A DNA stretch of 37,610 nucleotides, taken from contig NZ_AOII01000004.1 of the NCBI RefSeq assembly GCF_000337615.1, positions 1 to 37,610 of the forward strand, read 5' to 3'. The stretch comes from Natrinema pallidum DSM 3751. GTDB taxonomy: Archaea; Halobacteriota; Halobacteria; Halobacteriales; Natrialbaceae. Made by a program: the position numbers and the translations under genes. This document shows, piece by piece, positions 12,946 to 32,879 of the stretch. The notes beneath the pieces are model-generated. The model was not told the origin of the DNA, made no database searches, and saw nothing but the letters and a program-made list of their open reading frames with translations. The number at the start of each line of letters is the position of its first letter. The stretch's first letter is position 1.

Positions 12946-14322
12946 TCAGCCATTGGTGTGACTATCCGAGAGAATTGTTTGCCGAACCACAACACCGACT
13001 GCCTCCCCGAGTCGAGGTGGAACAGCATTACCAATCAGGCGGTATGCGTTCGTCCGGCTCTCAGGGAACCAGTAGGTGTCCCTGAACGACTGTAGCCTGG
13101 CCGCCTCTCGGGGGGAGAGTGAACGTGCCTCCGTCGGGTGGATGAACATGTGGCCGTCTTTGCGCATATGGGCGAGGATCGTTGACGCTGGCTTCCCGGG
13201 ATTCTGCTTCTTGTACTTATCCGAAAATACGTCGTCGCGGTATGGCTGGAGTCTGGTACTCACCTGACCGATGTTCCACCCGACGCCATGACCCAGCAGC
13301 TTGTATATTGAGAGGTCGAGATGATTGTGCCAGCGTGCGTCATGGTTACGGAGCGGCTGATCTTCCCAGTCCTCGCCATCTGGGACGTTTCGGACCCATT
13401 CCTGATACGGCGAGACGGGAGGGAGCGTATACTCAGTTGCTTGGCTCGGTGGCATCTCCCCATCGGGGGAAATCGGCGGCAAGTCCATAATCGCGTCTGC
13501 GACGGTGAGGTAGGGAAGTCTGTACTCCCGATCAGGCTCAAAGGGGGGGAGGACAGAGGACAAACCAGTTTCGAACGTCTCTTGAGATTTATCAGTGCTG
13601 TCCTTCAGTTCGGGACGAATCTGCATTTGCTGGTCTTTCTCTCTGTCGGTCGGCTCTCGGTGGGTGTACCATCGGGTGAGCTCTGGCAGAGCCTTTCCTG
13701 TTCGCCGGCCGATGAAAAAGAGCCGTTCTCGATGCTGGGGAACGCCGAAATCCGCAGCGTCGACGAGGAACTTGTCTACAGTATAGCCAAGACCCTCCAT
13801 TTCCTCAATTATTATCTCTGTAACAGGAACTTCCTCACCAACCGGGGACTGTTCGACCCCTTGTTCTTCCCCGATCGGAAGAGACTCCTGGACCGTATCT
13901 GACTCGACGGTGACTGTGTCAGTCAACATCCCAGGGACGTTCTCCATGACGAACGCCCGTGGCTGGAAATGCTTGACGTACCGGAGAAAATCAAGATACA
14001 GAACGTTCCGATCGTCCTCATCGACGGAGCGATCCTCGAGAGAGCCGAGCTTTGAACGACCGATCGTAGAGAACGATGGGCAGGGTGGTCCCCCCGCAAC
14101 GAGATCAAGATTGCCCGGCTCGATATCGGGACCATCCTCGGCAGGTTCGGTCTCACGGATATCTGCCTGAATAGCGTAATCACCGTGGTTCTCACGGTGG
14201 GTTTCAACAGCAGACTCGTCATAGTCGACTGCCCAGCGTACATCATAGCCGGCCCGTCGGAGCCCTTCAGAGAGCCCCCCAGCGCCACAAAAGAGGTCGA
14301 TCGCAGATGGCCCCGAATCCAT
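12946..14322 (-). CDS. drmMII: C5-cytosine DNA methyltransferase, DrmMII-like
   Basis: This 458-residue enzyme begins at ATG 14322. All main C5-methyltransferase motifs are present: motif I DLFCGAGGLS (residues ~9-18), the catalytic loop GGPPCPSFS (motif IV), ENVPGML (VI), PQHRERLFFIG (VIII), LSPREAARLQSF (IX) and GNAVPPRLGEA (X). It transfers methyl groups from S-adenosylmethionine to cytosine C5. It is the last gene after drmD, 47 bases downstream on the same strand, so the two are probably co-transcribed. Cytosine methyltransferases mark class 2 DISARM (DrmMII), whereas this locus also has the class 1 genes drmD and drmMI. The symbol is therefore given by role and position, not proven orthology. 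Confidence 0.9.
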   Translation of the reverse strand: MDSGPSAIDLFCGAGGLSEGLRRAGYDVRWAVDYDESAVETHRENHGDYAIQADIRETEPAEDGPDIEPGNLDLVAGGPPCPSFSTIGRSKLGSLEDRSVDEDDRNVLYLDFLRYVKHFQPRAFVMENVPGMLTDTVTVESDTVQESLPIGEEQGVEQSPVGEEVPVTEIIIEEMEGLGYTVDKFLVDAADFGVPQHRERLFFIGRRTGKALPELTRWYTHREPTDREKDQQMQIRPELKDSTDKSQETFETGLSSVLPPFEPDREYRLPYLTVADAIMDLPPISPDGEMPPSQATEYTLPPVSPYQEWVRNVPDGEDWEDQPLRNHDARWHNHLDLSIYKLLGHGVGWNIGQVSTRLQPYRDDVFSDKYKKQNPGKPASTILAHMRKDGHMFIHPTEARSLSPREAARLQSFRDTYWFPESRTNAYRLIGNAVPPRLGEAVGVVVRQTILSDSHTNG

Positions 14323-14369
14323 TGTGCGAACGAAAGGGCGGGAATGGGGAAAGTCGTTTGGAACTGTGA

Positions 14370-17312
14370 TCAGCTCTTGAAGGCATCGACGACGACGGCC
14401 ATATTCACGAGGTCGGGTTCATCAGGAACGACCTGTTCTTCCCCATCAAGCCGGGCCATCTCTGCATTTTTCTTCTCTCGTAATTCAGCAAGCTCGCTGC
14501 GGTGCTTTGCGAGTACCGCGCTCATATCTTCGCCTGCACGGTCACGCTTTTCGAACTGCTCGATTCGTTCTTCGAGATCTTCAATCCGGTATTCGAAGTA
14601 GTTCTTAGCGTGCTCTCGACGAATGCGGACCTCTCGCTCTCGGTCTGCGCGTGCTTCTTGTGCAAGGTCGTCGATGAGATCCCAAGCCACATCGTCTGCT
14701 TTCGAGACGAGCTGTTCAGCCTGCGCAGTTACAGTGCCAAGTGAGGGATGCCCGTCGAGAGCTGATGGGGGCAGCCCACCCGTAATGTGGATATTCTCGG
14801 ACTTGGTCGTTCCATCAGGGGTGACGTAGACCTGTGCGAGCTTCTCAGTCACCGTATCACCGCTCCCCGAGAGATATCCAATCCGGTAGTGACAGAGGAG
14901 CCCAGGTGTCTTCAGTTCCTCTCCTCCGGTGAGAACGGCCGTCTGTCCACCAACTGCATCCGTATCCAGACAGTACGCCATCATTGCCCGGACCACGGGG
15001 TGGTCGAGTGTGATGAACTCCAGACTCTCGTCTGCAAGCGCGTTCTCCCGGTCGAAGGTTGCACCGTCATATCGACTCGCCACATTCTCACTGGTAATCC
15101 GGTCAGGAACAACAAGATCAAACACGTCATCACCGTCTTTGGCAGGGCCGGGACGAACGTTTTCGAGGCCACCGCCGAACTCTTGGCAGACGGTTCTGAC
15201 GAGATATTCGACATCTTCGTCACTCACCGTATCAGCAGCACTCTCTTCGACGATATCGAGGATATCTCGATCTTCCTTGCTTAGGTCAAACTTATCGCGG
15301 ATGAGGAGTTCCTCGTCGACGCGCCGGACGGTCTCTTCTTGATCCTCGGCGATGGCCTCAAGATCGTCGACGACAGCATCAGGGCTCTGGCCGGTCGCGA
15401 GTGCAGACATAATCTGCTCTTCGAGGTCGATGTCTTCGAGTACGAGCCCGAGGACGTCCGAGCTCATCCCGAGCGTTTCCTCGATCTCGTCGATTTTATC
15501 GAGAAGCCGCTCGAGGATGATGCTCTCACGTGTGTCCTTGAAGAACAGGTTCCGAATCTCGACAGTCTCCTCCTGCCCGTAGCGGTGGAGGCGCCCAATA
15601 CGCTGATCTATTCGAGTCGGATTCCATGGTAGGTCGTAGTTCACCATGATATGGGCAAACTGCAGGTTCAGCCCTTCTCGAGCGGCGTCAGTCGCCAGCA
15701 TCACGTTTGCCGGCCCTTCAAATTTCTTGAACTGCTGCTGGCGCTGAGACTGAGAGAGGTCGCCGTAGATTTCTGCGATATTCCTGTCCCCGAACACCCG
15801 TCCCTTGAGATACTCGAGCGTGTCTGTGTATTCAGTGAAGATGAGGATTTTCTCGTCAGGATCCTCCTCTAGAATCCCGTCGACGTACTTCTGCAATCGT
15901 TCTGCCTTCGAGTCTACTTGGATGGCTTTTGCCTGGTTGTAGAGGTCACGGACTATCGAGAGCTCTTCTTCGATCTTCTCCGGATCACTAGAGACAACGG
16001 CACCACCAAGCTCTTCTTCAACGTGTTCACGCTGTGACTCCGTGAGCATCTCGGGATCCTCCCGGTACTCATCGAGCAGGCTTTTCGTAACTGGGGAGAG
16101 ATCCCCCGGGTCAGCACCACCTGCCTTGATGGACTCCATCCGGTTCTGGAGGGACTGCTGAATCGCGTAGATTGAAGAGACGAGGCGCTTCTGGTAGAGA
16201 ACCATTGCGAACCCCGCAGCGTCGTTCTCTTCTCGGCTGGCGAGATTATAGTGCTCGGTGATGTACTCCGTGATGTCGTCGTAGAGCCGCCGTTCCTCTT
16301 CTGTAAACCCAACCGGGAGTGTCTGAATGTTCTTCTCGGGGAACATCGGCGATCCGTCGGCCTCGTACATCTCGTCCTTCAACCGACGGATCATCAGGTC
16401 TCGCAGTCCCTCTTTGTCGACGTCGTGCTCGTCGCGGAAGCGATAGGGGTCGAGTAGCGAGATCATGAAGTAGAACTGATCGCGCTTCCCGTTGTGCGGA
16501 GTCCCGGTGAGAAACAGCAGCCCGTCAGAGGTTTCAGAAACTGCCTCACCGACCCGGTAGCGGTCCGTCTTGTCGATCCCGCGTTTCCCCTCACGACGTG
16601 CCGTGAGGTGATGCGACTCGTCGAAGAGCGCGATGTCCCAGTCCTCTTGGACGTTCTTCAGGGCCGAGAGCACGTCCTCCTGCTTGGCGAAGTCGATGGA
16701 GGTGATAATGTGGTTCTCGTGCGACCAGACGTTCTCAGCGGGGTAGGCGTCTTTCTTGGCCTCGACGTAGTCGCGGTCGTAGATGACGTAGTTCGTGTCG
16801 AACTTCTCTCTGAGTTCTTCCTGCCACTGGGTTGTGAGCGGCGCCGGGGCAACAATGAGGACACGGTCAGCTTGGCCGCGGGCAGCGAGTTCCTCGATGA
16901 CGATCGCCGCTTCGATGGTCTTTCCGAGTCCGACCTCGTCGCCGATGAGATAGCGATGGTCGTAGGAGGTGAGGATCTCGTGAGCAGCCTTCACTTGGTG
17001 GGGGGCAATGTCGATTCGATTGTTCTCCAGCGCGACGAATCGATCCTGCCGATGAGCGAGATCTAGTTCGGCCGCTCGAGTACGAAGGTTGAATCGCTGC
17101 GGGTCGTCGAACTCACCCTTCTCGAGGAGGTCGTCACTGCTGTCTATCAGGTCAACTACTGCAGCAGGAAGCTTCTTCGAGTCATCGTCATCGGTCAGGA
17201 TGTGGAGGAGACACTGGCCCGATGGTCGATGATTGGCCTTAACGAGTTCGCCTTCACCGCCCGCAAAGCTGACACGGTCCCCAATATCAAACCCGCACGC
17301 GCAATCAGACAC
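14370..17312 (-). CDS. drmD: DISARM SNF2/RapA-like helicase DrmD
   Basis: This 980-residue SF2 helicase begins at ATG 17312. An N-terminal beta-rich part with CACGFDIGDRVSF is followed by APHQVKAAHEIL (Q-like motif), Walker A GDEVGLGKT (residues 124-132), the DESH box (231-234), and FLTGTPHNG (motif III). The second RecA domain contains ILIFTEYTDTLEYL, ATDAAREGLNLQ and DQRIGRLHRYGQ (motif VI). A C-terminal helical region of ~350 residues ends in a coiled coil (residues ~900-955). The architecture is that of the RapA/HepA-like DrmD of class 1 DISARM, thought to move along DNA using ATP. It lies 42 bases after the 171-aa gene and 47 bases before the cytosine methyltransferase. Confidence 0.9.
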   Translation of the reverse strand: MSDCACGFDIGDRVSFAGGEGELVKANHRPSGQCLLHILTDDDDSKKLPAAVVDLIDSSDDLLEKGEFDDPQRFNLRTRAAELDLAHRQDRFVALENNRIDIAPHQVKAAHEILTSYDHRYLIGDEVGLGKTIEAAIVIEELAARGQADRVLIVAPAPLTTQWQEELREKFDTNYVIYDRDYVEAKKDAYPAENVWSHENHIITSIDFAKQEDVLSALKNVQEDWDIALFDESHHLTARREGKRGIDKTDRYRVGEAVSETSDGLLFLTGTPHNGKRDQFYFMISLLDPYRFRDEHDVDKEGLRDLMIRRLKDEMYEADGSPMFPEKNIQTLPVGFTEEERRLYDDITEYITEHYNLASREENDAAGFAMVLYQKRLVSSIYAIQQSLQNRMESIKAGGADPGDLSPVTKSLLDEYREDPEMLTESQREHVEEELGGAVVSSDPEKIEEELSIVRDLYNQAKAIQVDSKAERLQKYVDGILEEDPDEKILIFTEYTDTLEYLKGRVFGDRNIAEIYGDLSQSQRQQQFKKFEGPANVMLATDAAREGLNLQFAHIMVNYDLPWNPTRIDQRIGRLHRYGQEETVEIRNLFFKDTRESIILERLLDKIDEIEETLGMSSDVLGLVLEDIDLEEQIMSALATGQSPDAVVDDLEAIAEDQEETVRRVDEELLIRDKFDLSKEDRDILDIVEESAADTVSDEDVEYLVRTVCQEFGGGLENVRPGPAKDGDDVFDLVVPDRITSENVASRYDGATFDRENALADESLEFITLDHPVVRAMMAYCLDTDAVGGQTAVLTGGEELKTPGLLCHYRIGYLSGSGDTVTEKLAQVYVTPDGTTKSENIHITGGLPPSALDGHPSLGTVTAQAEQLVSKADDVAWDLIDDLAQEARADREREVRIRREHAKNYFEYRIEDLEERIEQFEKRDRAGEDMSAVLAKHRSELAELREKKNAEMARLDGEEQVVPDEPDLVNMAVVVDAFKS

Positions 17313-17354
17313 TATCGATTTCAGATGTGGCGGCCAGACTTAACTTCTCGCAAA

Positions 17355-17870
17355 TTAGTTACCGTGCTCTCGAAGAGGACCGATCCGTGTTTTAATTTCT
17401 TCAACTTCAGACTCAGTCAACCGGTCATAGGCGTATGTATCAAGAGACCCATCCGGCTCTGCGATGATCAGATAATAGTTTGTGAATATGATGAAAAAGC
17501 GGTAATCGAGAGCATTGAAATAATCGAAGTACTGAGAAGAGATGTCCATCGAGGTTACAGAATTTCTCTCATGGTTAACATCATGCCTCTCACCCATCCA
17601 CGTGCTTGCAAGTATACGGATTGAGTCAGTCGTCCGTTGTCGGATCACGAAATCAGCGACAAACCGGTCAAGCTCTGAGGATTCCTTCGGCTCCAGATAC
17701 ACCCGGTGCTCAATTCGGTCAGAATCATAGCCTACTTTCTCGAGAAAAGTCGTGCAACCAGATTCGAGCTTTTCCACTCCCCTCTCCGCGCTTTCTACCG
17801 TGTAATCCGCAGACGGCTCGAAGGCATATTGTTCGAGGAATGCTGCGATATTCTGGGAATCTGAACTCAT
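17355..17870 (-). CDS. 171-residue protein of unknown function heading the drmD operon
   Basis: I choose ATG 17870 (MSSDSQNIAAFLEQ) because a TATA box lies 27-36 bases upstream and the longer frame crosses it. The gene is more AT-rich than drmD. The C-terminal half (QYFDYFNALDYRFFIIFTNY, then LIIAEPDGSLDTYAYDRL) is reminiscent of the strand 'lwvlTNG...w.ly' in HsdR_N-like nuclease domains. A central segment (DRFVADFVIRQ, then IRILAST) could correspond to a degraded D...xK core without the lysine. That likeness is weak. It ends 42 bases before drmD and shares its promoter, so it may be an accessory DISARM protein. I do not recognise the family. Confidence 0.65.
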   Translation of the reverse strand: MSSDSQNIAAFLEQYAFEPSADYTVESAERGVEKLESGCTTFLEKVGYDSDRIEHRVYLEPKESSELDRFVADFVIRQRTTDSIRILASTWMGERHDVNHERNSVTSMDISSQYFDYFNALDYRFFIIFTNYYLIIAEPDGSLDTYAYDRLTESEVEEIKTRIGPLREHGN

Positions 17871-17896
17871 TATTGAATATATGAATTCATGGATCC

Positions 17897-17906: not shown

Positions 17907-18000
17907 ACGGGTTGCTGAGATGGGAATGGACCTGACCCTAGTACCGCGATTGAACGGTCCATGCAAATGCATTTCAAATACTGGTGACCAGAGTGACGGT

Positions 18001-19044
18001 ATGCAGCGCGCGTTCCGCGTTGGCGAGGCCTATCGGGACACGGGAAGCTTCAGGAGCTCGGAGGACCAGTTTCTGCGGTGGATCCGCGGTCCACTGAGTA
18101 GCGGAATCAAAAACACAGGTGGAATCCGCGACCTCGGTGCGAATCACTCGGAGATACCCGCGGCGCTAATCCTCGTCTCCAACGATGCGGGCGTCTCACA
18201 GCACGACGACCCGTGGGAGGACACGCTTGCGGTCAACGCTGGCTACGTGAGCTACTGGGGAGATGCGAAGAAGGATCTCCGGTATGACGAGTCGGCACAG
18301 AACCGGAAAATCAAGGATGCGTTCGACAGGATGGCCTCGGGACGACGTGAGGAGGTACCCCCCGTACTGGTGTTCCGGAAGCCTGAGAGCGGCGTCGTCG
18401 AGTTCTGTGGGCTTTGCGTCCCGGATCACTTTGAGGTGCGCACCTATCAGGACGATTCGGGAGAACAGATACCGAACTACCGCTTTCACTTCTCGATTCT
18501 CAACACACAAGCCGTTCCAGTCTCGTGGCTCCACAAGCGTGCGCAGACGAGCGACGACGACCAGGCGCCCGAAGTCTGGAAGCAGTGGGTCAGGGAAGGA
18601 GAGGTCGCCCAGTGGCCGACTGGCGAACTCCTCGATACGAAAGGAGAGGTTCGGCGCTACGAAACGACCAAGACGATGGTGAGTAAAGCGTTTCGGGAAG
18701 AGACGTTCAAACGGTACGGGCATGCCTGCGCGATGACCGGTATCCGTGAGGAGTCGCTACTGGACTTGGCGCACATACTGCCACAGAGCCAGCACCCCGA
18801 CCTCGCAGAGCATGCGGAGAACGTGCTCGTTCTGAACTCGCTCCATCACCGAGCGTTCGACGCCGCGCTGTTCACGGTCGACAGTGAGTATCGGATTCGG
18901 ACAAGTCCATCTTTCGAGCCTGCACATCCGTTTCTGCGGGAGACGATCACCGAGAAAGAGGGCAATCCGATTGCGTTCCCACCGGGCGTTCAGGTGCGGC
19001 CGGGATTCCTCGAGGAGCTGAATGCCGGCCTGTCGTGGTTGTAG
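18001..19044 (+). CDS. HNH endonuclease, ScoMcrA-like modification-dependent type
   Basis: From ATG 18001 (MQRAFRVGEAYRDTGSF) the protein has 347 residues. In-frame ATGs at 17920 and 17926 would add ~25 residues of less typical composition. Residues ~1-180 resemble the N-terminal recognition domains of ScoMcrA-type enzymes: an xRVGEAYR start, a block around AALILVSNDAGVS, a 'W-D-Y-G-D' stretch, then PPVLVFRKPESG. The C-terminal part carries the HNH nuclease: CAMTGIREESLLDLAHILP, then NVLVLNSLHHRAFDAALFTVD. ScoMcrA-like enzymes cut DNA bearing modifications such as 5-methylcytosine or phosphorothioate. The gene faces drmMI convergently and is divergent from the drmD operon. The nuclease call is firm; dependence on a modification is inferred. 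Confidence 0.8.
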   Translation: MQRAFRVGEAYRDTGSFRSSEDQFLRWIRGPLSSGIKNTGGIRDLGANHSEIPAALILVSNDAGVSQHDDPWEDTLAVNAGYVSYWGDAKKDLRYDESAQNRKIKDAFDRMASGRREEVPPVLVFRKPESGVVEFCGLCVPDHFEVRTYQDDSGEQIPNYRFHFSILNTQAVPVSWLHKRAQTSDDDQAPEVWKQWVREGEVAQWPTGELLDTKGEVRRYETTKTMVSKAFREETFKRYGHACAMTGIREESLLDLAHILPQSQHPDLAEHAENVLVLNSLHHRAFDAALFTVDSEYRIRTSPSFEPAHPFLRETITEKEGNPIAFPPGVQVRPGFLEELNAGLSWL

Positions 19045-19062
19045 TGTTGCGGTATACGCAGG

Positions 19063-22000
19063 TCAGTCGTCGGCGACCGCTTCTTCCACAATCTCGATCT
19101 CCTCGTCAGTTAGGTCGTAGAGATCGTAAACGATCTCGTCGATGAGCTGGTCAGTCTTCTCGATCTTCGCGTCCAGTTCATCCGCACGCTCGCGGTTCAC
19201 AACGTAGCGCCGGAGATCGTCCCCGATGTCGTCTGTATCGGGCAGCGTCATCGCCTTCAGTCGGTCCACCAAGGAGTTCGTCTTGGTGGCAGTCTCCCGA
19301 AATCCAGCGAATCCCCCGGCCTTGTCGACTGCAACGGGAACAAACGCTTCGACCAGCGTAGCCTCCTCGTCGCTCAGGTTGGTCACGCTGAAGACCGTCT
19401 CGTAGTCGGTTTCCCTATACCCCCATTGGTCAGTCTCGTACTCGTCTTCATTCTCAGGCTTGTAGCGTGCGGTCGCCTCGACGATAACAGTGTCACCTTC
19501 AAGTACGGTACGGACATCACCGACTCTGAGGTTTTCATAGTCCTCACTCGTAGCATCGAGATACTCGGGGCTGGAAGGCTGGAAAATACCGATGTCGGGG
19601 AGGTTTAGACCTTCTTCATAAGTGCCGAGGTAGTCAAGGAGTTCAAGATTGATGGAATTACGGTCGTCCAAATGGGATTTTTGTTCCTCTGCAACTCTCA
19701 CGAGCAGATCATGGACAATCTCCGTATCGTCGCTAGTATACTCGAAGATAGCTGATAGCATCTTCTCTCGGTCCATCTCCCCGTCTAGCAGAGATTGGTA
19801 CTCAGAGAATAATGATTCAACGGTGCTGTTCCGTTCAGTCTCGGGTAGGTCGAATTGCACATCCCGAATCGGGAGTTTTTCGAAGTGCGCTACCCGCAAT
19901 TTCGGGAATAGTTCGTCATTCTCGCTATACTTTTCTCGGAACCAGAACACAGAGGCCTTCGACCCGAGTAGTGCGAGTGCATACAGAAGATCTATTTCTT
20001 GATCCCCCTGTAGAGCGATGTAGATTCCACGGTCGACAACAAACTCCTCACTAATCACGTCTACTTGGAATCGCTCACCGAGGATTTCTCGGAGGAGTAG
20101 ACGCTTCCCCTCGAAGAATCTCTTCTCGCGGGGTTCCGCGAGCCAAGGACCATAGCTAATCCAAGTATCTCCCTCCCACTGTATGCTGTACCGAGAGAGA
20201 TGTTTTCCCTTCAGTTCTGGTACGTACGTATCGTCCTCTTTTTTGTCCGCGTGATAGGCTCTATCATCGATAATCTCTTGATCCTGTTGGCTGTGGTGGT
20301 ACGGTCCTACTCCTCGAACAGTCTCGTACAGGGAACCGAGATTTCGCGAGCGGCTCTCTATCTGGTTTAATATTGGAGCGACTGTACTATGGGTATAAAC
20401 TACATATCCGTCTTCCTCTCTCAAAAGAGAACTGGAAAATTCGTCGTTAATCTCGACTTGAGCATCGTCATCCATCTCGCCACGGAGGAAGGGATCTTCA
20501 AACCCGTCTGAGCGCTCACCGATATAGATGAGATGTTCTGCACCAACTTCTGGGAACGCAGATTGGGGGCTATGGATAATCTTTCGGGGCTGATTCTCTA
20601 TTAACAAGAATTCCCTAATTTTGGGAGTTCGATAGTTCGCCAGCCAAGGATCAGGTACAATGAATCCAATCGGTGATCCCTTTGAGAGCATATCCATCCC
20701 TCTTTCGAGGAATAAGGTGTAGAGATCAACCTGATACTCGGCAGTTTTGAACTGTTCGTTGTAGTAGTCCGCTTCTGCAGGCTTCCCTTTCATTCGTCCT
20801 ACATTCACCCAAGGCGGATTCCCGATCACTGCATCGAACCCGGCATCCGCTTTCCGCTCTCCATCTTGGTCGTAGAACGCCATCGGGAATTCCAGTTCCC
20901 AGTGGAAGAAGTGGTCGTCTTCGGCCATCGCCTGCGCACTCTTGAACCAGTCTTGTTGCTCTATTTTCTCCCACGCATCGCTGTGGAGCGCACGTGCCAT
21001 TCGCTCGTCGGCGTCACCGGGTACGTCGAGTCCGAACGCGTTGGCGGTGTGGACGTTGGCCATCGCGAGGAGTTTCTTGTAGAGCGGGTCGGCGCGAACG
21101 TCGTCGTACACTGCCTCCATCTCCTTTGCGTCTTCTAGCGTCTCGTTGTCGATGTTGAGCAGGTCTTGGAAGCGATCGGTGACGTGCTCCATTGCCCGCT
21201 GGCGCGTGTGGTCGAACGACTGCTGGAGTGTTAGCTGGCCGTCCCCTGTGGCGTCATCGTCGCCATTGGTCAGCACGTCCTCAATGTCACTCCCGACGAG
21301 CGAGTTCCCAGTCTTGAGGTGGTGGTCGAGGAACGCGAGCGGCTGCTCCGCAGCGAGCGTCCGCAGCCAGAGAGAGACCTTCGCCAGCTCGGTCGCGAGC
21401 GGATTGACGTCGACACCGTAAATACAACGTTGTGCGACCTTCCGGCGCGCCCAATTGATATCTCGGAGTTCGCCCTCCTCCGTGGTTGGCGGTCGAATCT
21501 CAGCATCCTCGGCGTCGATAGCTTGACGGTCCTGCTCCTCTTGGGCGTCGATGATCTCCCGCGCGAGGTAGTCTACCGCGTTGACTGGGAAGTGACCACT
21601 CCCCATTGCGGGGTCCAACACAGTGAGGGCGAAGATCCGTTCGGCAAACTCGTCGGCAAACCCTCCTTCCCGGCTGTGAGTCGTATCCGCGCTCTGGGAC
21701 ATGAGGTCCGAGCGTATTTCGTCGACCAGTGGCCCGAGCGTCTCGTCGACGATGTACTCGACGACGTACTCGGGGGTGTAGTACGACCCTGTGGCCTTGC
21801 GCTCCCCATCGTCAGTTCGAAGATACACCTCGCCCACCTCGACGGTGATATCGTCGTCGTCTCCGGCAGGGGTGTACTCACCATCGTCGACGGTCAACGG
21901 TTCGTCGGCCACGTCGAGTTTGTACTCTAGCAGCCCCTCATAGATCGATCCGAGATTCCGCTCGTCGAGCGACGAATAGTCGACGAATACCTTCCCCTCG

Positions 22001-23387: not shown

Positions 23388-24317
23388 TCAGATATCGACA
23401 CGGATCGCGCTCGCGGAGTCAAGAAGGCACGTACAGAGCTCTCGGAAGGGAGTGACCTTCGCACCCTCGAGAAGCACGCCAAGCTCGAGGTACCGATTGA
23501 ACCCATAATCGGTGACGTTAGCGCTCCCGATATACGCAGCTCGGGAGTCAAACAACATCACCTTCGCGTGGAGGGTAAACTGCGGGTTCTCCCCATCTTG
23601 TGTTCGCTCCTCCATCGGGGTGCTGTCATCCCAAACTGTGTAGTCGACGAGTGAGACGCGTGAAGCGACCCCCTGCTCCGCAACGCGGTCCATGAACGAC
23701 TGAATGACATGGTAATTGTGCGACTCTGTATCCGACAGATAGCGCGTGACGATCGTCAGGTCGACCCCCCGTTCGAGTGCATCAAGGAGCACGTCGGCCA
23801 GACGACCGAAGCCTTCCCCCTCGAAAAACGGGGAGAGTAGGATAATCTCGCTGTCACAGCGTTTGATCTGGCTGGCCAGCGTCGAGAGCAGTCCATCCAT
23901 CCCGAACGAGGCGGCAGTCGTGCCACTGAATGCGGGATCGTCAGGGAATGTTATCAGTGGCGTTACTGTTGTCGTCGGGACTCGCTCCTGATGGGCCGCC
24001 AGTATGCGAATTGACTCCTGGGCACGCTCGAGAACTTGGCGGGTTCGCGTGGCGTCGACGGTAAAGCGGGTTTCCACCAGATCGGTTTCGTAGGACTCTC
24101 GCTGGACAACATCACACTGCAGAAACTGGCGGAAGAGGTCGGTTGCAGCCTCCCGACTCAGTCTCGTATCGCGCGCGACAGCAGCAGGAGAAAGACGCTC
24201 GCCTCGGCCCGCAGCGACGAGGAGGAGGCCTTCCAGTTCATCCAGAAGTGTCTCATCGTGCTCCGCAATATCGGCGATCGCAAGCGTCCGATCAATGGCT
24301 AGATGTTGGCTGGACAT
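23388..24317 (-). CDS. drmC: DISARM phospholipase D-family protein DrmC
   Basis: This 309-residue protein has an N-terminal winged-helix-like region (residues ~20-80). A PLD domain follows, with a strand-turn near LLSPFFEGEGFGRLADVL and a single complete HKD motif, LHAKVMLFD followed by GSANVT. PLD-family nucleases with one HKD act as dimers. In the DISARM system of Bacillus, DrmC was reported as dispensable or weakly needed for protection. The start ATG 24317 is 24 bases beyond the drmB stop, so the gene is in the drmA-drmB-drmC transcription unit. Family and role are well supported. Confidence 0.88.
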   Translation of the reverse strand: MSSQHLAIDRTLAIADIAEHDETLLDELEGLLLVAAGRGERLSPAAVARDTRLSREAATDLFRQFLQCDVVQRESYETDLVETRFTVDATRTRQVLERAQESIRILAAHQERVPTTTVTPLITFPDDPAFSGTTAASFGMDGLLSTLASQIKRCDSEIILLSPFFEGEGFGRLADVLLDALERGVDLTIVTRYLSDTESHNYHVIQSFMDRVAEQGVASRVSLVDYTVWDDSTPMEERTQDGENPQFTLHAKVMLFDSRAAYIGSANVTDYGFNRYLELGVLLEGAKVTPFRELCTCLLDSASAIRVDI

Positions 24318-26303: not shown

Positions 26304-26309
26304 CGTTGA

Positions 26310-29300
26310 TCACCGGTTGTCCATGGTCTCGAAGATTTCTCGGTAGCGGTACTCAGACCGGATTGGGAGTTGCTCGTCGACGTCCCGAAGGCTGCGCATC
26401 GGCGAGCGCTTGATGCGGCCGCTCGTCCACTGGTCATCGTCGAGGCGGAGCTGCGAGAGAGCCTCTTTGGTAAGATCCTCGATATCGCCCCGGAACTCCT
26501 CGTGGTCGTCAGGGTCACCGAACATCCCCAGCATCTGCTGGCGGAGTTCGCCCTCGTCGACGGAGTCAGCGAACCCCTCGGCGTTATCACCGAAGTAGAG
26601 GTTCCCGCTGCCGTCACGGTACATATAGTGGTTGAGCAGCAGCCCCATGAACAGACCCGGATGGGTCTGTTTGACGCTGTTTTTCGCCCAGCGGTTGATC
26701 GGGACGGGCTCGACCAGCCGATCGAGGAAGGCGTGGTACTTCTCGAAGAAGTGGTAGTGACTCAGGTCACGCTCCCGGATGGGGTGTGCAACGTTAAACA
26801 CGAGGCCAGGGCGCGACCGACCTGCACGGGAACTTGCCTGGATGTATTCAGCAGTCCCGCGAGGCATCCCGAAGAACGTCATCATATTGAACCGGTCAAC
26901 GTCAACCCCATGGGCGATCATGTTCGTCGCCGTAATCGTATTGAGTCGACTCGCCAGCAGCCAGGCGAGTGCCTCGCGCGTATTTTCACTCGCACGGGCG
27001 CGCTCGACGTCGAACTGATCGCTGTCAATGACCTCGTTCTCCTCGTCGAGGCTAGCCTCGAGCGTGCTCCGAAGCGAGAGGACGGAGTCTGTCACGTCCT
27101 CCTCGACCACCCCTCGATCAATCAGGTGGTTGAGGATCTGTTCGTCGGCTTCCTCGTCCCAGGGGTTCTCCACGACGTCCAAGACCTCCATGATGGTCTC
27201 GAACCCGGTCCCACCGGTCATCCGCTCGGAGGCCAGCGGCGGTCGGCCGTCTTCTTGGAGATAGGTGTCGAGCTGGGAGACGATGGACTGATCCAGTCGG
27301 TCTCCGTCTTTCTTCGAAAGCAGATAGGTGATGCTGGTGCTGTAGTAGCTGAGCAGGGCCAGCACCTCGTCGATCGAGTCGGCCTCGAGCGGCGCTGTTG
27401 TGTCCGTCCCCTCGAGTGCAGCACCTGTCAGCACCTGAGTCGGGTCGTTCAGTGACCTGCGGAACAGGTTCTGTATCTCCCGGTGGTAGTAGAACAGGAG
27501 ATCGATGATGGAGTTGATGTGGGTTTTCCCGTGGGGTACCAGTCCGATGTAGTAGCGTTGGGTCTCTGCGCGCTCCTGTGCGTAGAAGTTCTCGCGCAGG
27601 TACGGGCCCGGAGAGGGGAAGCGCTCGGCTGGCCGCATGAACAGGTTATGCACCTGATCTTCGAATCCGGTGATGGTCGCTGTCGGCGCAATCACCTTCG
27701 TCTTCCCGGCCTCGACGAGCTCCTGTAGCTCAGCAACCCCGGTCTCGTAATGGCCGTCGAAGCTCCCCATGCTCTCTTCCAGCAAGTGGAGTTCGTCGGG
27801 GACCATTAGCGACGGCGCAGGGTCGTAGGGTTCGACCGGACGCGCCATGTCGGAGAAATCGTCCTGGTCGATCGGACAGCCGTACTTCTCGGTGCACTCA
27901 CCGAGGCTTGCGAACCCATGAATGGGGCACTCGAGCGTCATTTCGCCCGTAATGAGGTGAGCGAACTTCCGCTGATACCCGATGGCCGTGATCTTGTCGA
28001 TCGTACCTGCGAGAATGGTCGGCGCGTACCGGTAGAGCTCGTTGTCGACGACGTGGACCGGGAGTTCCTCCTCGGCGTACGTCTCACTGGTGTCTAGTGA
28101 GCGCGACTGCCACGGGCAGTCGAAGCTGCTCCCCGTACAACAGTGAGTCAGCCGATGGTCGTCCTCGGTGACCTGGACCTCAACATCCGCGCCGCAGGCC
28201 GGACAGCTGGGAACGACTTTCGCCTCACGCCGGAGACTCTCTCCAGATGGGCCCTGATACCGCTGATGGTTGTTGTTGTCGTACCCGGTGAGAGCGTTCG
28301 GCGTGTTCGCCTTGCCGACGAGATAGCCCATCGAGAACGGGCGGGAGGGGTAAGAGCCGATATCTGACTGTTCGCGGCGAACAAGGTCGGCGTACATCAC
28401 CGTCTCCGTCATCCGCTGGAACTGCTGGAGCGAGAGAAGCCGGAGCGGGAACTTCGTCCATGTGGTCACGCCGAAGTTCTTCCCACGGAGCCGGTCGAAA
28501 AACATACTCCAGACGGCGACCCCGAGGAACGCTTCGGTTTTCCCACCGCCCGTCGGGAACCAGAGCACGTCAACGACATCGAGGGGCGAATCGGCGTCCT
28601 CCGCGCGGTCCTCGGTCGACCCATCGCGCCAGTCGACCTCCGCCCACTCCTCGTACTCACGGCTAGCAACGTCGGGCACCTCCATGACGATGAACACCAA
28701 CTGGAAGAGGCGCCAGCCGGGGAACTCGTGCATCCGGTCCATCGCCTCATTCATCAGTTCGAACGCGCGGCCGACTGTTTCAGGGTGCTGACGGAGGCAC
28801 TCGATCCCTCGTTCGAAGCGCTCGATCTCGCGCTCGAACGCGTCACGGTCATCGTTGAAGTCGGCGAGATCGCCCGTCTCGGGGTCGTCGTCCCAGTCTT
28901 CACGCTCACGATACTGTTCGAGAGCGGCGTCGTACTCATCGCGGAGGTACTGCCGCATCTCGGCGGCGATTTCGTTGAGGGTATCCAGGCCGCCGTTTTC
29001 TAGGTCAGCGAGCACCTCGAACGCCGTGTTGGCGTCGCGATCTGCGGATTCGTAGACGAGCTGGCGGTACTCCGGGATGAACTGCGTCTCCAGGCGATTC
29101 GCCGTCGGTGCTGCATCAGGTGCGCGGCGGCCAGGCGGGATGCCGTCCTCGTCCACCTTCTGGTCGTCGCGTTCAGGGGCAGTAACTGTGCAGTTACGCC
29201 CGTGGCCCCAGAGGTCGCGGTTGTACCGGAAGTCCTCGGGGAGTGGGTCGAAGGTGAAGGGGACGAACTCGAGATCGCCTCTCGTCTCCAGTTTGAGCCC

Positions 29301-30125
29301 TACCTCGAACAGGGTCGGGTCCCGGATGGTGTAGATAGCGTCGTCGCGCGACTGGACTGCCTCGTTCGCAATTTCGAAGTCGACGATGGTACTGTCATCA
29401 CCGTTCTCCTCGTCAGCCATTACCTCGACGGTCAGGCTAGCGTGCCAGTCGGGGAGAGCAGGAGACCCCTCAGCAGCGCGTTCAGCGAGGTAGCCACGGA
29501 AGCTTACCTCGTCTTCTAGCGCGGCCGGCGGGACGGTGTCGTCATCGTCTGTCTCAGCGTAGAGGTCGTAGTTCTCCCGAGCATACTCACGGGCGTCAGC
29601 AAATGCCGTCTGGAACGCTTCCCGAGCACGCTCTTGGATGACATCCGGAGTAGTCCGCCTTGGCGTTTGGAGCACGGCTGACGGGATCTTGATCGGGGGC
29701 ACATCGAGCTCGATCCGTTCGAAAACCGGGAGCAAGCTGTCGCCCTCGTCGTCTTCGTCGCGGTCCCCCAGTGCGACGAAGGAGTCCCGGTTCACCATCT
29801 CGTCGTACGTGGGGTTAACGCGAACCCACACGCTCGCGTTGACCGAAAGGGTCAGCTCGTCGCCTTCGGTGCCGCCTCGTACGCGAACGGTGGCGCCGAG
29901 GCCGGTCGGCTGCATCTTCGACTGCAGGTCGTCGTCCGGATCGTCTAGCTGATCCTCGCTTTCAGGCGCCAGCGCGCCCGCGAAGAATCGATCGCTGGGG
30001 AAGTCCCGCTGGACACGCTCGTCGATGTCGCCACGAGCCTGTTTCAGCACCGTCTCGCGGAGGTGCCGGGCGATGCGTTCGTCATCAGCCGGGGGTTCAG
30101 TCCCGGCACTGCTTCCTATAGACAT
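26310..30125 (-). CDS. drmA: DISARM helicase DrmA
   Basis: I start at ATG 30125 (MSIGSSAGTEPPADDE), 5 bases after the upstream stop; a longer frame reads back into that gene but is a shadow. The 1271-residue protein has ~500 N-terminal residues unique to the family. It then has Walker A PTGGGKTEAF (residues 524-533), the DELH box (LMVPDELHLLEE), a zinc-like insert (CPACGADVEV, THCCTGSSFDC), TATITG (motif III), and a second domain with GVDVDRFNMM and QASSRAGRS (motif VI). This is the DrmA/MrfA-type SF2 helicase fold. DrmA binds unmethylated DNA ends and, with DrmB, carries out the core DISARM action. Confidence 0.93.
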   Translation of the reverse strand: MSIGSSAGTEPPADDERIARHLRETVLKQARGDIDERVQRDFPSDRFFAGALAPESEDQLDDPDDDLQSKMQPTGLGATVRVRGGTEGDELTLSVNASVWVRVNPTYDEMVNRDSFVALGDRDEDDEGDSLLPVFERIELDVPPIKIPSAVLQTPRRTTPDVIQERAREAFQTAFADAREYARENYDLYAETDDDDTVPPAALEDEVSFRGYLAERAAEGSPALPDWHASLTVEVMADEENGDDSTIVDFEIANEAVQSRDDAIYTIRDPTLFEVGLKLETRGDLEFVPFTFDPLPEDFRYNRDLWGHGRNCTVTAPERDDQKVDEDGIPPGRRAPDAAPTANRLETQFIPEYRQLVYESADRDANTAFEVLADLENGGLDTLNEIAAEMRQYLRDEYDAALEQYREREDWDDDPETGDLADFNDDRDAFEREIERFERGIECLRQHPETVGRAFELMNEAMDRMHEFPGWRLFQLVFIVMEVPDVASREYEEWAEVDWRDGSTEDRAEDADSPLDVVDVLWFPTGGGKTEAFLGVAVWSMFFDRLRGKNFGVTTWTKFPLRLLSLQQFQRMTETVMYADLVRREQSDIGSYPSRPFSMGYLVGKANTPNALTGYDNNNHQRYQGPSGESLRREAKVVPSCPACGADVEVQVTEDDHRLTHCCTGSSFDCPWQSRSLDTSETYAEEELPVHVVDNELYRYAPTILAGTIDKITAIGYQRKFAHLITGEMTLECPIHGFASLGECTEKYGCPIDQDDFSDMARPVEPYDPAPSLMVPDELHLLEESMGSFDGHYETGVAELQELVEAGKTKVIAPTATITGFEDQVHNLFMRPAERFPSPGPYLRENFYAQERAETQRYYIGLVPHGKTHINSIIDLLFYYHREIQNLFRRSLNDPTQVLTGAALEGTDTTAPLEADSIDEVLALLSYYSTSITYLLSKKDGDRLDQSIVSQLDTYLQEDGRPPLASERMTGGTGFETIMEVLDVVENPWDEEADEQILNHLIDRGVVEEDVTDSVLSLRSTLEASLDEENEVIDSDQFDVERARASENTREALAWLLASRLNTITATNMIAHGVDVDRFNMMTFFGMPRGTAEYIQASSRAGRSRPGLVFNVAHPIRERDLSHYHFFEKYHAFLDRLVEPVPINRWAKNSVKQTHPGLFMGLLLNHYMYRDGSGNLYFGDNAEGFADSVDEGELRQQMLGMFGDPDDHEEFRGDIEDLTKEALSQLRLDDDQWTSGRIKRSPMRSLRDVDEQLPIRSEYRYREIFETMDNR

Positions 30126-30130
30126 ACTGA

Positions 30131-31786
30131 TCACTCTGTAATCCGGTCGAGCTGGTCGTCTGAGATGATGGTAGGCATGATTGTGGGAGCGAGGGCGTTG
30201 ATGCTCCGGGATACAACCTCGGCTGTTATAAGGTCCGTGTCCTTGAGACTCGTGCCGTACTCGCCGACGTAGTCGCGGTACATGGTGATGGTGTAGAACA
30301 CCATCGCGAGTTCGTAGTGCTGCTCGACGAACTCTTTCCACGTGTCCTTGACGTTGCGCTCGACGATGAACGACCGGAGTGCGGCAGCGTCCATGTTGAT
30401 CGTGAGTGAGAGGCCACTGATGGTGCCATCCTGACTTGGGTCGAGGTGTATCAGCGTGTGTTCGTCGAAGTTCCTCGCATCGTCTGCGTTGAACTCCTCT
30501 GGGTTAATTGGCTCACCATCGTCGTTGGTTCGCCAGTTCTTTTCGTGAACGTACGCGATGTCGGGCATCTCGAAGCCCCAGTCGTCGGTGACACCGTCGT
30601 TGCCTGCCGTCCCTTCGCGGTCGCTCGCGCTGGCGCCGTCGTCACCGGACGTGTCGGTGGTGTCTCCCTCGCCGTCGCCGTCGCCGTCGCTCTCGCTCTC
30701 GGAAGGGGAGTGCGAATTGTCTGTCGCCTCGACGTACTCGAGTTGGCAGCGTGCGGTGAGTGAGGCAGTATCGACGTTCACGCCGCCGTCGGTGGCGACG
30801 TCGGCCTCCACACGTTCCGGATAGGCGTCCGCCGGGTCGTCGACCGATGAGCAGTCGCGCGGGTCCGGCCGGGTCAGCTCGACCGACAGGGCTGTCTCCT
30901 TTCCAGGATCGGCGTCTTCGGGCGGGTCCACGGTCAGCGTGAGCAGACCGTCCTGAAGCTCGATCGCGCGGAGCTGCTCGGGACACGAAACCTCGAGCGT
31001 GCCCGAGAGGACGTCCCGGGCGAGGTAGTCGTTCTGAGCGTCCGTGGCGAACCGGACTGTCGCCGATCCGTTGACGGGGGTCTCAACGGGCATGGGCTCG
31101 TCGGCCTCCCAGAGGACGTGCTCCTCGCTCCCGGGGTTATACTCCTCGATGGGGACGAGGAAGGTCGGGAGCTTCGGCGCGTGCGGCGCGTCGCCTCCGT
31201 TTTCGTCACCACCCGAGGTGTCAGTGTGGTCGGAAAGGTTGTCGTCGGCGGACTCAGGCGCGGACTCGTTCCCACCGTCACTCGGACGGATGCGGGGTGC
31301 GCGGATCCGTTCGCCGGTGGCCATGAAGTTCCCGACCTCCGGGTTCCGCTCGATGAACTCGGCGAACGTATCGGTGTCGGTCGCCGGTTCGGCGTTTCCA
31401 CGCTGGGCCCGTCGGCGTTCCTCTTCATCGGTGAGCAGGTCACTTCCTTCGAGGGCGTCTTCGAGGGCGTTGAGGAACTTGTTGGCCTGCGGAGAGTCCT
31501 TCAGCGTATCCCGCGACGGGCTGAACATGTTCACCATTCCGAGGTTCGCGAGATCGTCGAACTCGGCGATAACGACGGTGTCTGAGGCGACCTTCGAGTA
31601 CCCCAGCGACTTCAGGAAGTACTCACCCTTGCTCCCGTGGGTCTGGCCGTTGATGGTGAGCATCACGGCGTGGTCCTTCTGGACCCCTGTACGTCCAGTA
31701 GCGTCTTTGTGCGTCGAAGTACCGGACACGAACTTACTCTTCTCGTCGGCGGCGTCACCGAGGTCGTCGTCTTTGAACAGCAGCAC
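30131..31786 (-). CDS. C-terminal part of split GHKL ATPase gene
   Basis: The GTG at 31786 gives 551 residues, but coding character continues upstream in this frame to about 31909 (for example GFLQELEDGNEHLLEGREHL). The part therefore joins the preceding frame at a homopolymer. Residues ~40-90 (AVMLTINGQTHGSKGEYFLK, then VVIAEFDDLANLGMVNMFSP) resemble the transducer region that follows a GHKL ATPase domain. After an acidic linker comes an Ig-like beta domain (SGTLEVSCPEQLRAIEL). A second acidic linker and a helical C-terminus end 5 bases before drmA. If expressed alone it would lack the ATP site. Its role in DISARM is inferred from operon position only. Confidence 0.7.
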   Translation of the reverse strand: MLLFKDDDLGDAADEKSKFVSGTSTHKDATGRTGVQKDHAVMLTINGQTHGSKGEYFLKSLGYSKVASDTVVIAEFDDLANLGMVNMFSPSRDTLKDSPQANKFLNALEDALEGSDLLTDEEERRRAQRGNAEPATDTDTFAEFIERNPEVGNFMATGERIRAPRIRPSDGGNESAPESADDNLSDHTDTSGGDENGGDAPHAPKLPTFLVPIEEYNPGSEEHVLWEADEPMPVETPVNGSATVRFATDAQNDYLARDVLSGTLEVSCPEQLRAIELQDGLLTLTVDPPEDADPGKETALSVELTRPDPRDCSSVDDPADAYPERVEADVATDGGVNVDTASLTARCQLEYVEATDNSHSPSESESDGDGDGEGDTTDTSGDDGASASDREGTAGNDGVTDDWGFEMPDIAYVHEKNWRTNDDGEPINPEEFNADDARNFDEHTLIHLDPSQDGTISGLSLTINMDAAALRSFIVERNVKDTWKEFVEQHYELAMVFYTITMYRDYVGEYGTSLKDTDLITAEVVSRSINALAPTIMPTIISDDQLDRITE

Positions 31787-31859
31787 GGTGATGTCTCGCT
31801 CGCCCAGCGTTTCCGAGTCGGTATCGACGGTGAGATGCTCTCTTCCTTCGAGGAGGTGC

Positions 31860-32879
31860 TCATTCCCGTCCTCCAGTTCTTGCAGGAACCCTCGCGTGGA
31901 ACTTTGGGGGAACTTCGAGTGAGTTATACCGGAGGTCGGTCAGCTGGATGGGGTACGGTGAGTCGACGACTGACCGCTCGAACTTGTGCCGGAACCCTTC
32001 ATCGCCGCTTATCATCGTTCGCGATGCGTTCGTCTGGTAGTCGTACACCTTGACGAAGGCGCCGTGGCTCTGCGGATCGGGCGTTGTCGTGTTCTTCTCG
32101 AAGTCGTACTTCTCAGGGTAGTTCTCGCGGAATTTATCCGTGAGCGCCCCACCGAACGTCCCGTCGAAGATGGGGAACCCGCCGTTCACCGTAAGATACT
32201 CCACCTGACTCTTGCGAGGCTTGTCGTGTATTAACGTCCACGACCACTCGCCCGGCTCATGAACGGACGCACTTGCGATGAACTTGAACGCCCGCTCGTT
32301 ATACTCCTCTTCGATGTTTCCGGCGAACTGCATTACGGCGGTGCTCCCCATACCGTACTGCCCCTGCAGGAAGGCGTACTTCTGCTTCTTCAGTCCGGGT
32401 GCGTGCAGCCCGACGAAGTCGTCGAACTCCGAGCGGGCTTTCCCCTTGCCGTTGTCGCGGACCGTGAGGTTGAGCAAATTCCCCTCCTGCGGTGCGTAGC
32501 CGTCGGCGATTATCTCGAGTTCGGCGACGTCGAGGTCAACCCAGTCCGACTGTGCGGCTTCCTTCATCGAGGAAGCGCTCGGGTCGTCGCCGACCGCGCG
32601 GGCCTCCTCGTAGAAGCGAAGGGTGAGTGAGTCCTCCGCGTTCAGCGGCAGTTCCGAGAACGCCGCCATCGGAGAACTCGCCTGCGTGTAGACGTCGGAG
32701 TAGTTGTTCTCGTCGTTACCGAGGGGTACCCAGTTGATTTCGTACGCTTCCCCCAACTCAGAGAGGGCTTCCTCCAGTTCGTCGATGACCGCTCGGACCT
32801 CGTCAGGGCTATCTGCGGTGAGTAGCCGTTCGGCGTACGCCTTGGAGGTAGATCCTGAGAGCCGCACGGGCTCGGTCAT
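31860..32879 (-). CDS. N-terminal GHKL ATPase part, split by frameshift
   Basis: From ATG 32879 (MTEPVRLSGSTSKAYAERL) this frame gives 339 residues ending in an unrelated tail (VPPKFHARVPARTGGRE). A GHKL (gyrase/Hsp90/histidine kinase/MutL) ATPase is indicated by LTVRDNGKGK (the DxGxGK box, residues ~140-149) and FLQGQYGMGSTAVMQFAG (the GxGxGS-like lid), with an upstream Glu-rich helix. Loss of one C from the five-C run at 31910-31906 fuses it to the next frame, giving 915 residues. GHKL ATPases act as ATP-driven DNA clamps (MORC, MutL, GyrB). It heads the minus-strand unit leading into drmA. The ATPase call is good; a DISARM role is inference. Confidence 0.75.
   Translation of the reverse strand: MTEPVRLSGSTSKAYAERLLTADSPDEVRAVIDELEEALSELGEAYEINWVPLGNDENNYSDVYTQASSPMAAFSELPLNAEDSLTLRFYEEARAVGDDPSASSMKEAAQSDWVDLDVAELEIIADGYAPQEGNLLNLTVRDNGKGKARSEFDDFVGLHAPGLKKQKYAFLQGQYGMGSTAVMQFAGNIEEEYNERAFKFIASASVHEPGEWSWTLIHDKPRKSQVEYLTVNGGFPIFDGTFGGALTDKFRENYPEKYDFEKNTTTPDPQSHGAFVKVYDYQTNASRTMISGDEGFRHKFERSVVDSPYPIQLTDLRYNSLEVPPKFHARVPARTGGRE

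What the first reader, a model, noticed from the sequence alone, without database searches (positions are those of the whole stretch)
12946..32879. Extended DISARM locus combining class 1 and class 2 methyltransferases
Seen: drmA, drmB, drmC, drmMI and drmD homologues plus a cytosine methyltransferase on one strand over 20 kb. Known: class 1 DISARM carries DrmD and the adenine methyltransferase DrmMI, while class 2 carries the cytosine methyltransferase DrmMII. Here both mark types appear to be used. The unit is also split: GHKL-drmA-drmB-drmC, then drmMI, then 171aa-drmD-methyltransferase. This suggests a double-marked DISARM in Halobacteria.
Basis: partly seen in the sequence, partly recalled or inferred. 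Interest (0 to 1): 0.75.

Follow-up and report, generated by a model that had tools for sequence, protein, structure and literature searches.

The report
Three-methyltransferase DISARM-like defence locus, Halobacteria
A salt-loving archaeon carries a virus-defence gene cluster of the DISARM type in which three different DNA-marking enzymes, a helicase and a modified-DNA-cutting enzyme travel together; the marking enzymes and helicase recur in all 17 close relatives found, so it is a real and unusual variant of a known defence system, probably built by joining the DISARM core to a free-living two-gene restriction module.

Summary
DrmA, DrmB, DrmC, an adenine methyltransferase (MI), an SNF2 helicase and a C5-cytosine methyltransferase (C5MT1) are there, and so are a second C5 methyltransferase (C5MT2, 33446-35758 +) and an AspBHI_N-HNH modification-dependent nuclease (17998-19044 +), both missed. 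In 17 of 17 loci of the close DrmA family (15 on one contig, 2 split between contigs) DrmABC, MI, SNF2, C5MT1 and C5MT2 occur together in shuffled gene orders, so C5MT1 is not a stray orphan. C5MT2, with an endonuclease-III-like N-terminal domain, occurs in 20 of 391 class genomes, 19 of them beside a drmA.

Three corrections. Serratia DISARM already pairs m6A with m5C (PMC9142583), so double marking is not new. 'DrmMI-DrmD' is better read as a haloarchaeal type IIG-SNF2 pair that also exists alone; MI keeps an invariant PD-(D/E)XK motif that two canonical cyanobacterial DrmMI lack. The window's GHKL gene is frameshifted.

Best reading: a class-1-like DISARM variant with one hypervariable adenine mark, two lineage-stable cytosine marks and accessory modified-DNA enzymes. 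New variant of a known kind.

The parts
12946..14322 (-). C5MT1: C5-cytosine DNA methyltransferase, 458 aa (DrmMII/type II-like)
   Evidence: PF00145 1.1e-59; PADLOC MTase_II 292 bits, DrmMII 266 bits; present in 17/17 close-family loci; PC and ENV motifs kept
14370..17312 (-). SNF2-family helicase, 980 aa (DrmD position; BrxHII/DrmD/HmaA superfamily)
   Evidence: PADLOC BrxHII 562.6, HmaA 418, DrmD 377.7 bits; NCBIfam DrmD 426 of cut-off 610; DISARM-linked copies form one clade apart from stand-alone copies
17355..17870 (-). orf171: 171-aa protein of unknown function, found only in the nearest relatives
   Evidence: homologues only in G084 and G054; no Pfam or PADLOC match
17998..19044 (+). 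AspHNH: AspBHI-type SRA-like modified-cytosine reader + HNH nuclease (type IV-like), nested on the opposite strand
   Evidence: PF18062 2.1e-38, PF13391 2e-10; AspBHI 4oc8 8.5e-14, LpnPI, MspJI; between MI and SNF2, opposite strand, in most close-family loci
19063..23226 (-). MI: type IIG-like adenine methyltransferase, 1387 aa (DrmMI position)
   Evidence: PADLOC DrmMI 320 bits, Type IIG 181 bits; Eco57I and TaqI_C Pfam domains; SAM and NPP[WY] motifs kept
22793..23037 (-). MI N-terminal PD-(D/E)XK motif region: E64, P92-D93, D121-x-K123, Q145
   Evidence: invariant in 13 aligned MI; PD and DxK invariant in the 24 of 25 MI that cover them, DISARM-linked or stand-alone; structure prediction failed (pLDDT 42), so motif-level evidence only
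19627..20679 (-). MI target-recognition region, hypervariable (residues about 850-1200)
   Evidence: identity 0.17-0.31 against about 0.8 in the N-terminal half
23388..24317 (-). drmC: phospholipase D-like nuclease
   Evidence: PF13091 7.4e-14; PADLOC DrmC 1.8e-14; HxK(x4)D motif kept in relatives
24342..26303 (-). drmB: DUF1998-type DISARM core protein
   Evidence: PADLOC DrmB 7.9e-53; NCBIfam DrmB family 5.5e-21
26310..30134 (-). drmA: DISARM core helicase, start corrected from relatives
   Evidence: PADLOC DrmA 2.9e-155; 1274-aa orthologues start here; Walker A and DEAH-like motifs kept
30131..32879 (-). GHKL (MORC/Hsp90-like) ATPase gene, frameshifted near 31920 in this genome
   Evidence: single 905-941 aa frame in G054, G084, G290, G314, G202; two frames here; PF13589 0.0015 in the G084 copy
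33446..35758 (+). C5MT2: HhH-GPD-like domain fused to a C5-cytosine methyltransferase (start more likely 33518)
   Evidence: PF00145 1.5e-59; present in 17/17 close-family loci; 19 of 20 genomes that carry it have it beside a drmA
33920..34267 (+). endonuclease III-like (HhH-GPD) stretch of C5MT2, catalytic residues not conserved
   Evidence: profile match to endonuclease III 8a5c E 7.9e-5, also 8a5f and 4unf

Best explanation
The locus is a class-1-like DISARM variant of Halobacteria that joins the DrmABC core to a type IIG-SNF2 pair and two C5-cytosine methyltransferases. Proposed working: MI, with a fast-changing recognition domain, places a strain-specific N6-adenine mark; C5MT1 and C5MT2, whose recognition parts stay similar across lineages, place more constant m5C marks. 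DNA lacking the marks is engaged by DrmAB (as in Serratia DISARM) and by the SNF2 helicase with MI, and is degraded by DrmC and possibly by the MI nuclease domain. The nested AspBHI-HNH enzyme would be a second layer against DNA carrying modified cytosines in other contexts, as type IV enzymes do in BREX islands. In many relatives a Mig.Mth-like T:G glycosylase beside C5MT2 would repair deaminated m5C. Shown here: gene content, conservation, domains, motifs, phylogeny. Inferred: every biochemical step, the division of labour and the antiviral function.
For: All 17 close-family loci (13 complete in sampled genomes, G054 and G336 split over two contigs, plasmids of Halarchaeum sp. CBA1220 and strain DL31) carry DrmABC+MI+SNF2+C5MT1+C5MT2 despite several different gene orders. 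DISARM-linked SNF2 of 15 loci form one clade (SH-aLRT 96) apart from 20 other SNF2, including a second copy inside one of these loci and the stand-alone copy of this genome (quick tree). C5MT2 sits with drmA in 19 of 20 genomes; genome-level co-occurrence P about 1e-17 (ignores relatedness). MI recognition region 0.17-0.31 identical against about 0.8 elsewhere, with no such trough in C5MT1 or C5MT2. GHKL and drmA overlap; drmA-drmB-drmC are packed. DrmAB is activated by unmethylated DNA and damped by m5C in Serratia (PMC9142583). BREX with type IV precedent: PMC8565348.
Against: MI-SNF2 also exists as a stand-alone pair in 12 of 12 sampled non-DISARM loci of the 52-56% SNF2 group and in Halobacterium salinarum R1, and C5MT2-C5MT1-GHKL exists without drmABC in G064, so the parts can work apart. 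MI of three DISARM loci (G137, G202, G319) nests with stand-alone MI. C5MT1 and C5MT2 trees do not give one DISARM clade. No methylome, expression or challenge data. In this genome GHKL is frameshifted and the glycosylase is truncated, so this copy may be partly decayed. How AspHNH spares m5C made by C5MT1 and C5MT2 is unexplained.
Confidence: 0.6

Rival explanations
1. A stacked defence island: a DISARM core with its own cytosine methyltransferase (C5MT2), next to an independent type IIG-SNF2 restriction pair, an orphan C5MT1 and an independent type IV nuclease; they share an address, not a mechanism.
For: MI-SNF2 pair free-living in 13 examined loci; MI swaps with stand-alone copies in 3 loci; C5MT2 also in DrmE-type DISARM without MI-SNF2; gene order shuffled and strands mixed.
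Against: 17 of 17 close-family loci keep the full set; the DISARM-linked SNF2 is a separate clade from free-living SNF2; G202 keeps all four marking/helicase genes although its DrmABC-GHKL half is of a different lineage.
Confidence: 0.3
2. A true class 1 DISARM with bona fide DrmD and DrmMI, merely divergent, plus extra cytosine methyltransferases; MI has no nuclease activity.
For: PADLOC DrmMI is the top family for MI and NCBIfam DrmD the top family for SNF2; canonical class 1 loci have the same drmD-drmMI-drmABC content.
Against: MI keeps invariant PD and DxK residues, while two canonical DrmMI have VQI/IQI in place of (D/E)xK; full-length similarity is to type IIG-like enzymes (316, 311 bits) more than to canonical DrmMI (147, 125 bits); SNF2 is 55% identical to stand-alone copies and 29-32% to canonical DrmD.
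Confidence: 0.25
3. In this particular genome the system is decaying and only the methyltransferases still act, as orphan or regulatory marks.
For: GHKL frameshift, truncated glycosylase and a transposase next door, IS66 element at 10607-12064.
Against: All core frames (drmA, drmB, drmC, MI, SNF2, both C5MT, AspHNH) are intact with catalytic motifs; GHKL is absent from other full loci, so not essential.
Confidence: 0.1

Closest known systems
DISARM class 1 (drmD-drmMI-drmABC; e.g. Planktothrix agardhii plasmid p1, Pseudanabaena galeata pPg_01)
   Same: DrmA, DrmB, DrmC, an SNF2 helicase and an Eco57I/MmeI-like adenine methyltransferase in one locus
   Different: two extra C5 methyltransferases, HNH reader-nuclease and GHKL; MI keeps the PD-(D/E)XK motif; helicase only 29-32% identical; all scores below NCBIfam cut-offs
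Serratia sp. class 1 DISARM with both m6A and m5C methyltransferases (PMC9142583)
   Same: adenine and cytosine marks within one DISARM operon
   Different: one C5 methyltransferase as described, not two; no HhH-GPD fusion, HNH or GHKL mentioned in the passages read
DISARM class 2 and haloarchaeal DrmE-like DISARM (G105, G211, G228, G316)
   Same: DrmABC core with a C5 methyltransferase; the four haloarchaeal loci carry a C5MT2 orthologue at 46-54%
   Different: they have a DrmE-like protein and lack MI and SNF2; the window has no DrmE
Stand-alone haloarchaeal type IIG-SNF2 pair (Halobacterium salinarum R1 PHS1, OE_RS11090-11095)
   Same: MI 47% and SNF2 55% identical, same order, overlapping genes
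   Different: no DrmABC and no C5 methyltransferases; often a TBP-like gene instead
MORC/paraMORC restriction systems (Iyer et al. 2008, PMC2292703)
   Same: GHKL ATPase with SNF2 helicase, HNH nuclease, PLD-fold nuclease and cytosine methylases in predicted operons
   Different: those loci are not described there with DrmA/DrmB; family placement of this GHKL was not tested
AspBHI/MspJI modification-dependent endonucleases
   Same: SRA-like N-terminal reader, 8.5e-14 to AspBHI
   Different: C-terminal HNH nuclease instead of the PD-(D/E)XK domain of that family

Membership tests
DISARM (core) | DrmA helicase | tested here: met
   PADLOC DrmA 2.9e-155, although NCBIfam 401 of cut-off 950
DISARM (core) | DrmB (DUF1998) | tested here: met
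   PADLOC DrmB 7.9e-53; NCBIfam 75 of cut-off 240
DISARM (core) | DrmC PLD nuclease | tested here: met
   PADLOC DrmC 1.8e-14, PF13091 7.4e-14
DISARM class 1 | SNF2 helicase DrmD | tested here: inconclusive
   NCBIfam best family is DrmD but 426 of 610; PADLOC ranks BrxHII (562.6) above DrmD (377.7); nearest relatives are stand-alone haloarchaeal SNF2
DISARM class 1 | adenine methyltransferase DrmMI | tested here: inconclusive
   PADLOC DrmMI top at 320 bits over the core, but full-length relatives are type IIG-like and the nuclease motif is kept
DISARM class 2 | C5 methyltransferase DrmMII | tested here: inconclusive
   C5MT1 and C5MT2 match DrmMII at 266 and 204 bits, generic MTase_II higher; C5MT2 is DISARM-linked in 19/20 genomes
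DISARM class 2 | DrmE | tested here: not met
   no DrmE match among the locus proteins; DrmE is seen in G005 and weakly in G231
Type IIG restriction-modification enzyme (for MI) | nuclease, methyltransferase and target-recognition domains in one chain | tested here: inconclusive
   PD and DxK residues invariant, Eco57I + TaqI_C domains; nuclease fold not confirmed
BREX type 5 | PglZ/BrxC with BrxHII | tested here: not met
   no PglZ- or BrxC-type domain among the locus proteins or other main window frames scanned; only the SNF2 resembles BrxHII
DISARM | protection against viruses with host DNA marked by methylation | not testable with these tools
   needs methylome and challenge experiments

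The most novel reading that the evidence does not exclude
A layered-mark DISARM assembled by fusing two defence modules: the DrmABC core recruited a free-living haloarchaeal type IIG-SNF2 pair whose nuclease is still active, and it tells self from foreign by a combined code of one rapidly changing m6A motif plus two constant m5C motifs, one written by a methyltransferase fused to a repurposed endonuclease-III-like domain found almost only with DISARM, with a modified-cytosine-reading nuclease checking DNA that carries m5C in the wrong context.
Probability: 0.25. Interest if true: 0.72.

Novelty: new variant of a known kind. Interest (0 to 1): 0.52.

Why it matters
It shows that the class-defining half of a DISARM-like system (adenine methyltransferase plus SNF2 helicase) has close relatives living as a separate two-gene module, which makes the modular origin of DISARM classes testable in genetically tractable haloarchaea. 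A cytosine methyltransferase fused to a glycosylase-like domain that is almost confined to DISARM loci, and a modified-cytosine nuclease kept beside two cytosine methyltransferases, raise a concrete question: how do these systems combine several marks without cutting their own DNA?

Tried and rejected
Structure of MI residues 1-460: AlphaFold2 with 13 sequences gave pLDDT 42, unusable; profile search of the PDB found nothing credible, so the nuclease claim rests on motifs. C5MT2 fold search: only the methyltransferase half filled the list; the N-terminal domain was not tested alone by fold, and the absence of glycosylases in that list is not evidence. Profile-profile comparison of that domain with the Mig-like family was uninformative; the HhH-GPD reading rests. 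Considered and rejected: GHKL as two genes or a conserved programmed frameshift (relatives have one frame); C5MT1 as an orphan; BREX type 5 (no PglZ or BrxC). The genome-contig scan found only close relatives. A literature search for an earlier description of a TBP-SNF2-restriction pair found nothing in the held library. The careful SNF2 tree did not finish; the quick tree is quoted.

Full report
WHERE IT IS. The window is the first 37,610 bases of a 44,552-base contig (G000:C4) of a haloarchaeon in the same genus as Natrinema gari: G054 is marked same genus, and its contig is N. gari JCM 14663.

OBSERVATION. The reading frames exist as described. PADLOC, Pfam and NCBIfam place DrmA, DrmB, DrmC, an Eco57I-type adenine methyltransferase (MI), an SNF2 helicase and a C5 methyltransferase (C5MT1). 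All four scored DISARM proteins are under NCBIfam's cut-offs, so this is a divergent DISARM. Two genes were missed: AspHNH (17998-19044 +), an AspBHI-type SRA-like reader joined to an HNH nuclease, and C5MT2 (33446-35758 +), a 770-aa protein with a second C5 methyltransferase. The GHKL gene is one 905-941 aa frame in five relatives and two frames here, broken near 31920. drmA starts about 30134 by comparison with relatives.

CONSERVATION. DrmA was searched in 125 family and 391 class genomes; 52 of the 391 have a match. The relatives with 56% identity or more were read out with their surroundings, and two named plasmids added. All 17 loci carry DrmABC, MI, SNF2, C5MT1 and C5MT2: 15 on one contig, G054 and G336 split over two contigs. 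Orders differ: C5MT1 sits next to SNF2, or beside C5MT2; C5MT2 lies on either side. AspHNH lies between MI and SNF2 on the opposite strand in most loci; in G290 and G319 this slot holds Nmad2/Nmad3-domain proteins instead. C5MT2 was found in 20 of 391 class genomes at E below 1e-100; 19 have it near a drmA, including four distant DISARM loci with a DrmE-like protein. C5MT1 relatives are in 29 of 391 genomes; copies with 58% identity or more are almost all in these loci, and about a dozen at 50-55% are elsewhere.

THE MI-SNF2 PAIR ALSO LIVES ALONE. SNF2 relatives with 52-56% identity occur in many haloarchaea outside DISARM. In all 12 such loci examined MI lies directly beside SNF2, with no DrmABC and no C5 methyltransferase of these two families in the fetched stretch; several add a small TBP-fold protein (PF00352). 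Halobacterium salinarum R1 plasmid PHS1 has the same trio, and this genome has its own stand-alone pair (G000:C46, L102). In a quick tree the 15 DISARM-linked SNF2 form one clade (SH-aLRT 96) apart from the others. For MI, 12 of 15 DISARM copies form one clade and three (G137, G202, G319) nest with stand-alone copies. So SNF2 looks like a stable DISARM partner, while MI is sometimes replaced. G202 has DrmABC-GHKL near the window's (DrmA and DrmB 80-81%) but MI, SNF2 and both C5MT at 46-61%, a sign of module exchange.

MI IS NOT A TYPICAL DrmMI. E64, P92-D93, D121-x-K123 and Q145 are invariant in 13 aligned copies, and the PD and DxK pairs in every one of the 24 of 25 copies that cover them. 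Two canonical DrmMI, from loci annotated as DISARM by NCBI, have VQI or IQI where (D/E)xK would be; bacterial type IIG-like relatives keep E-x-K. Full-length similarity to those relatives is 311-316 bits, against 125-147 bits for the core of canonical DrmMI. Only two canonical sequences were compared, and the fold of the domain could not be predicted. The MI recognition region (about 850-1200) is 0.17-0.31 identical to the window, the N-terminal half about 0.8; C5MT1 and C5MT2 show no such trough. The inference is one variable adenine mark and two steadier cytosine marks.

C5MT2 AND THE GLYCOSYLASE. The N-terminal domain of C5MT2 matches endonuclease III (E 7.9e-5). By the alignment, the catalytic lysine position is not lysine and the aspartate varies, so it is probably a DNA-binding remnant. 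A separate 260-280 aa gene beside C5MT2 in about half of the loci is best matched by Mig.Mth (1kea, 8.1e-47) and keeps the tyrosine and aspartate that I recall as its active site, plus four cysteines; it plausibly repairs T:G mismatches from deaminated m5C. In this genome it is truncated, outside the window. A Vsr gene next to a Roseomonas DISARM-like locus would be a functional parallel.

MECHANISM. In Serratia, DrmAB is switched on by unmethylated DNA with a 5' overhang and its ATPase falls on m5C DNA; that operon has both an m5C and an m6A methyltransferase (PMC9142583). I propose the same logic with three writers, an SNF2 motor, DrmC and perhaps MI as nucleases, and AspHNH as a guard against DNA with modified cytosines in other contexts, in the way type IV enzymes complement BREX (PMC8565348, seen as title and abstract). 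GHKL with SNF2, HNH and cytosine methylases recalls MORC-type restriction systems (PMC2292703). None of these steps was tested here.

VERDICT. Real, conserved, and a new variant of DISARM; double marking itself was known. The most useful new facts are the universal set of DrmABC, MI, SNF2 and two C5 methyltransferases, the near-exclusive DISARM link of C5MT2, and the free-living MI-SNF2 pair.

Noticed in passing
window 30131-32879: GHKL ATPase gene is frameshifted near 31920, while five relatives have a single frame.
   Followed up: yes
G000:C46:70377-77500 (L102), L103-L111, L116, L117, L124: Stand-alone MI-SNF2 pair, often with a TBP-fold protein (PF00352). An SNF2 ATPase next to a TBP-like protein recalls eukaryotic Mot1-TBP (own knowledge); function unknown.
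   Followed up: partly
G000:C4:39386-39754 and 39846-42932 (L069): Just outside the window: a truncated Mig.Mth-like glycosylase and a second SNF2 helicase (51%), with a DDE transposase between them and C5MT2.
   Followed up: partly
G064:C1:2136149-2142700 (L097, L098): C5MT2-C5MT1-GHKL cassette without any DrmA, DrmB or DrmC nearby.
   Followed up: no
L071:9352-11037 and L079:8718-9998: Nmad2/Nmad3-domain proteins in the MI-SNF2 slot that holds AspHNH in the window: apparently a slot for enzymes dealing with modified DNA.
   Followed up: no
window 17998-19044: A modified-cytosine reader-nuclease kept beside two C5 methyltransferases in most loci; how self-cutting is avoided is unexplained.
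   Followed up: partly
L125:11877-12260: vsr mismatch endonuclease gene next to a Roseomonas DISARM-like locus with a C5 methyltransferase, parallel to the Mig-like gene here.
   Followed up: no
window 8001-10087: AT-rich stretch (GC 0.39-0.44 against about 0.56 around it) with two frames lacking Pfam matches, next to an IS66 transposase at 10607-12064.
   Followed up: no
window 2200-3042: 280-aa protein with an HPxxxxNxR-like motif (HPLPNANHR), possibly Fic-related; no Pfam match.
   Followed up: no
window 12090-12401: 103-aa frame with a GSF-(x)n-DIDIW motif resembling a minimal nucleotidyltransferase, by eye only.
   Followed up: no
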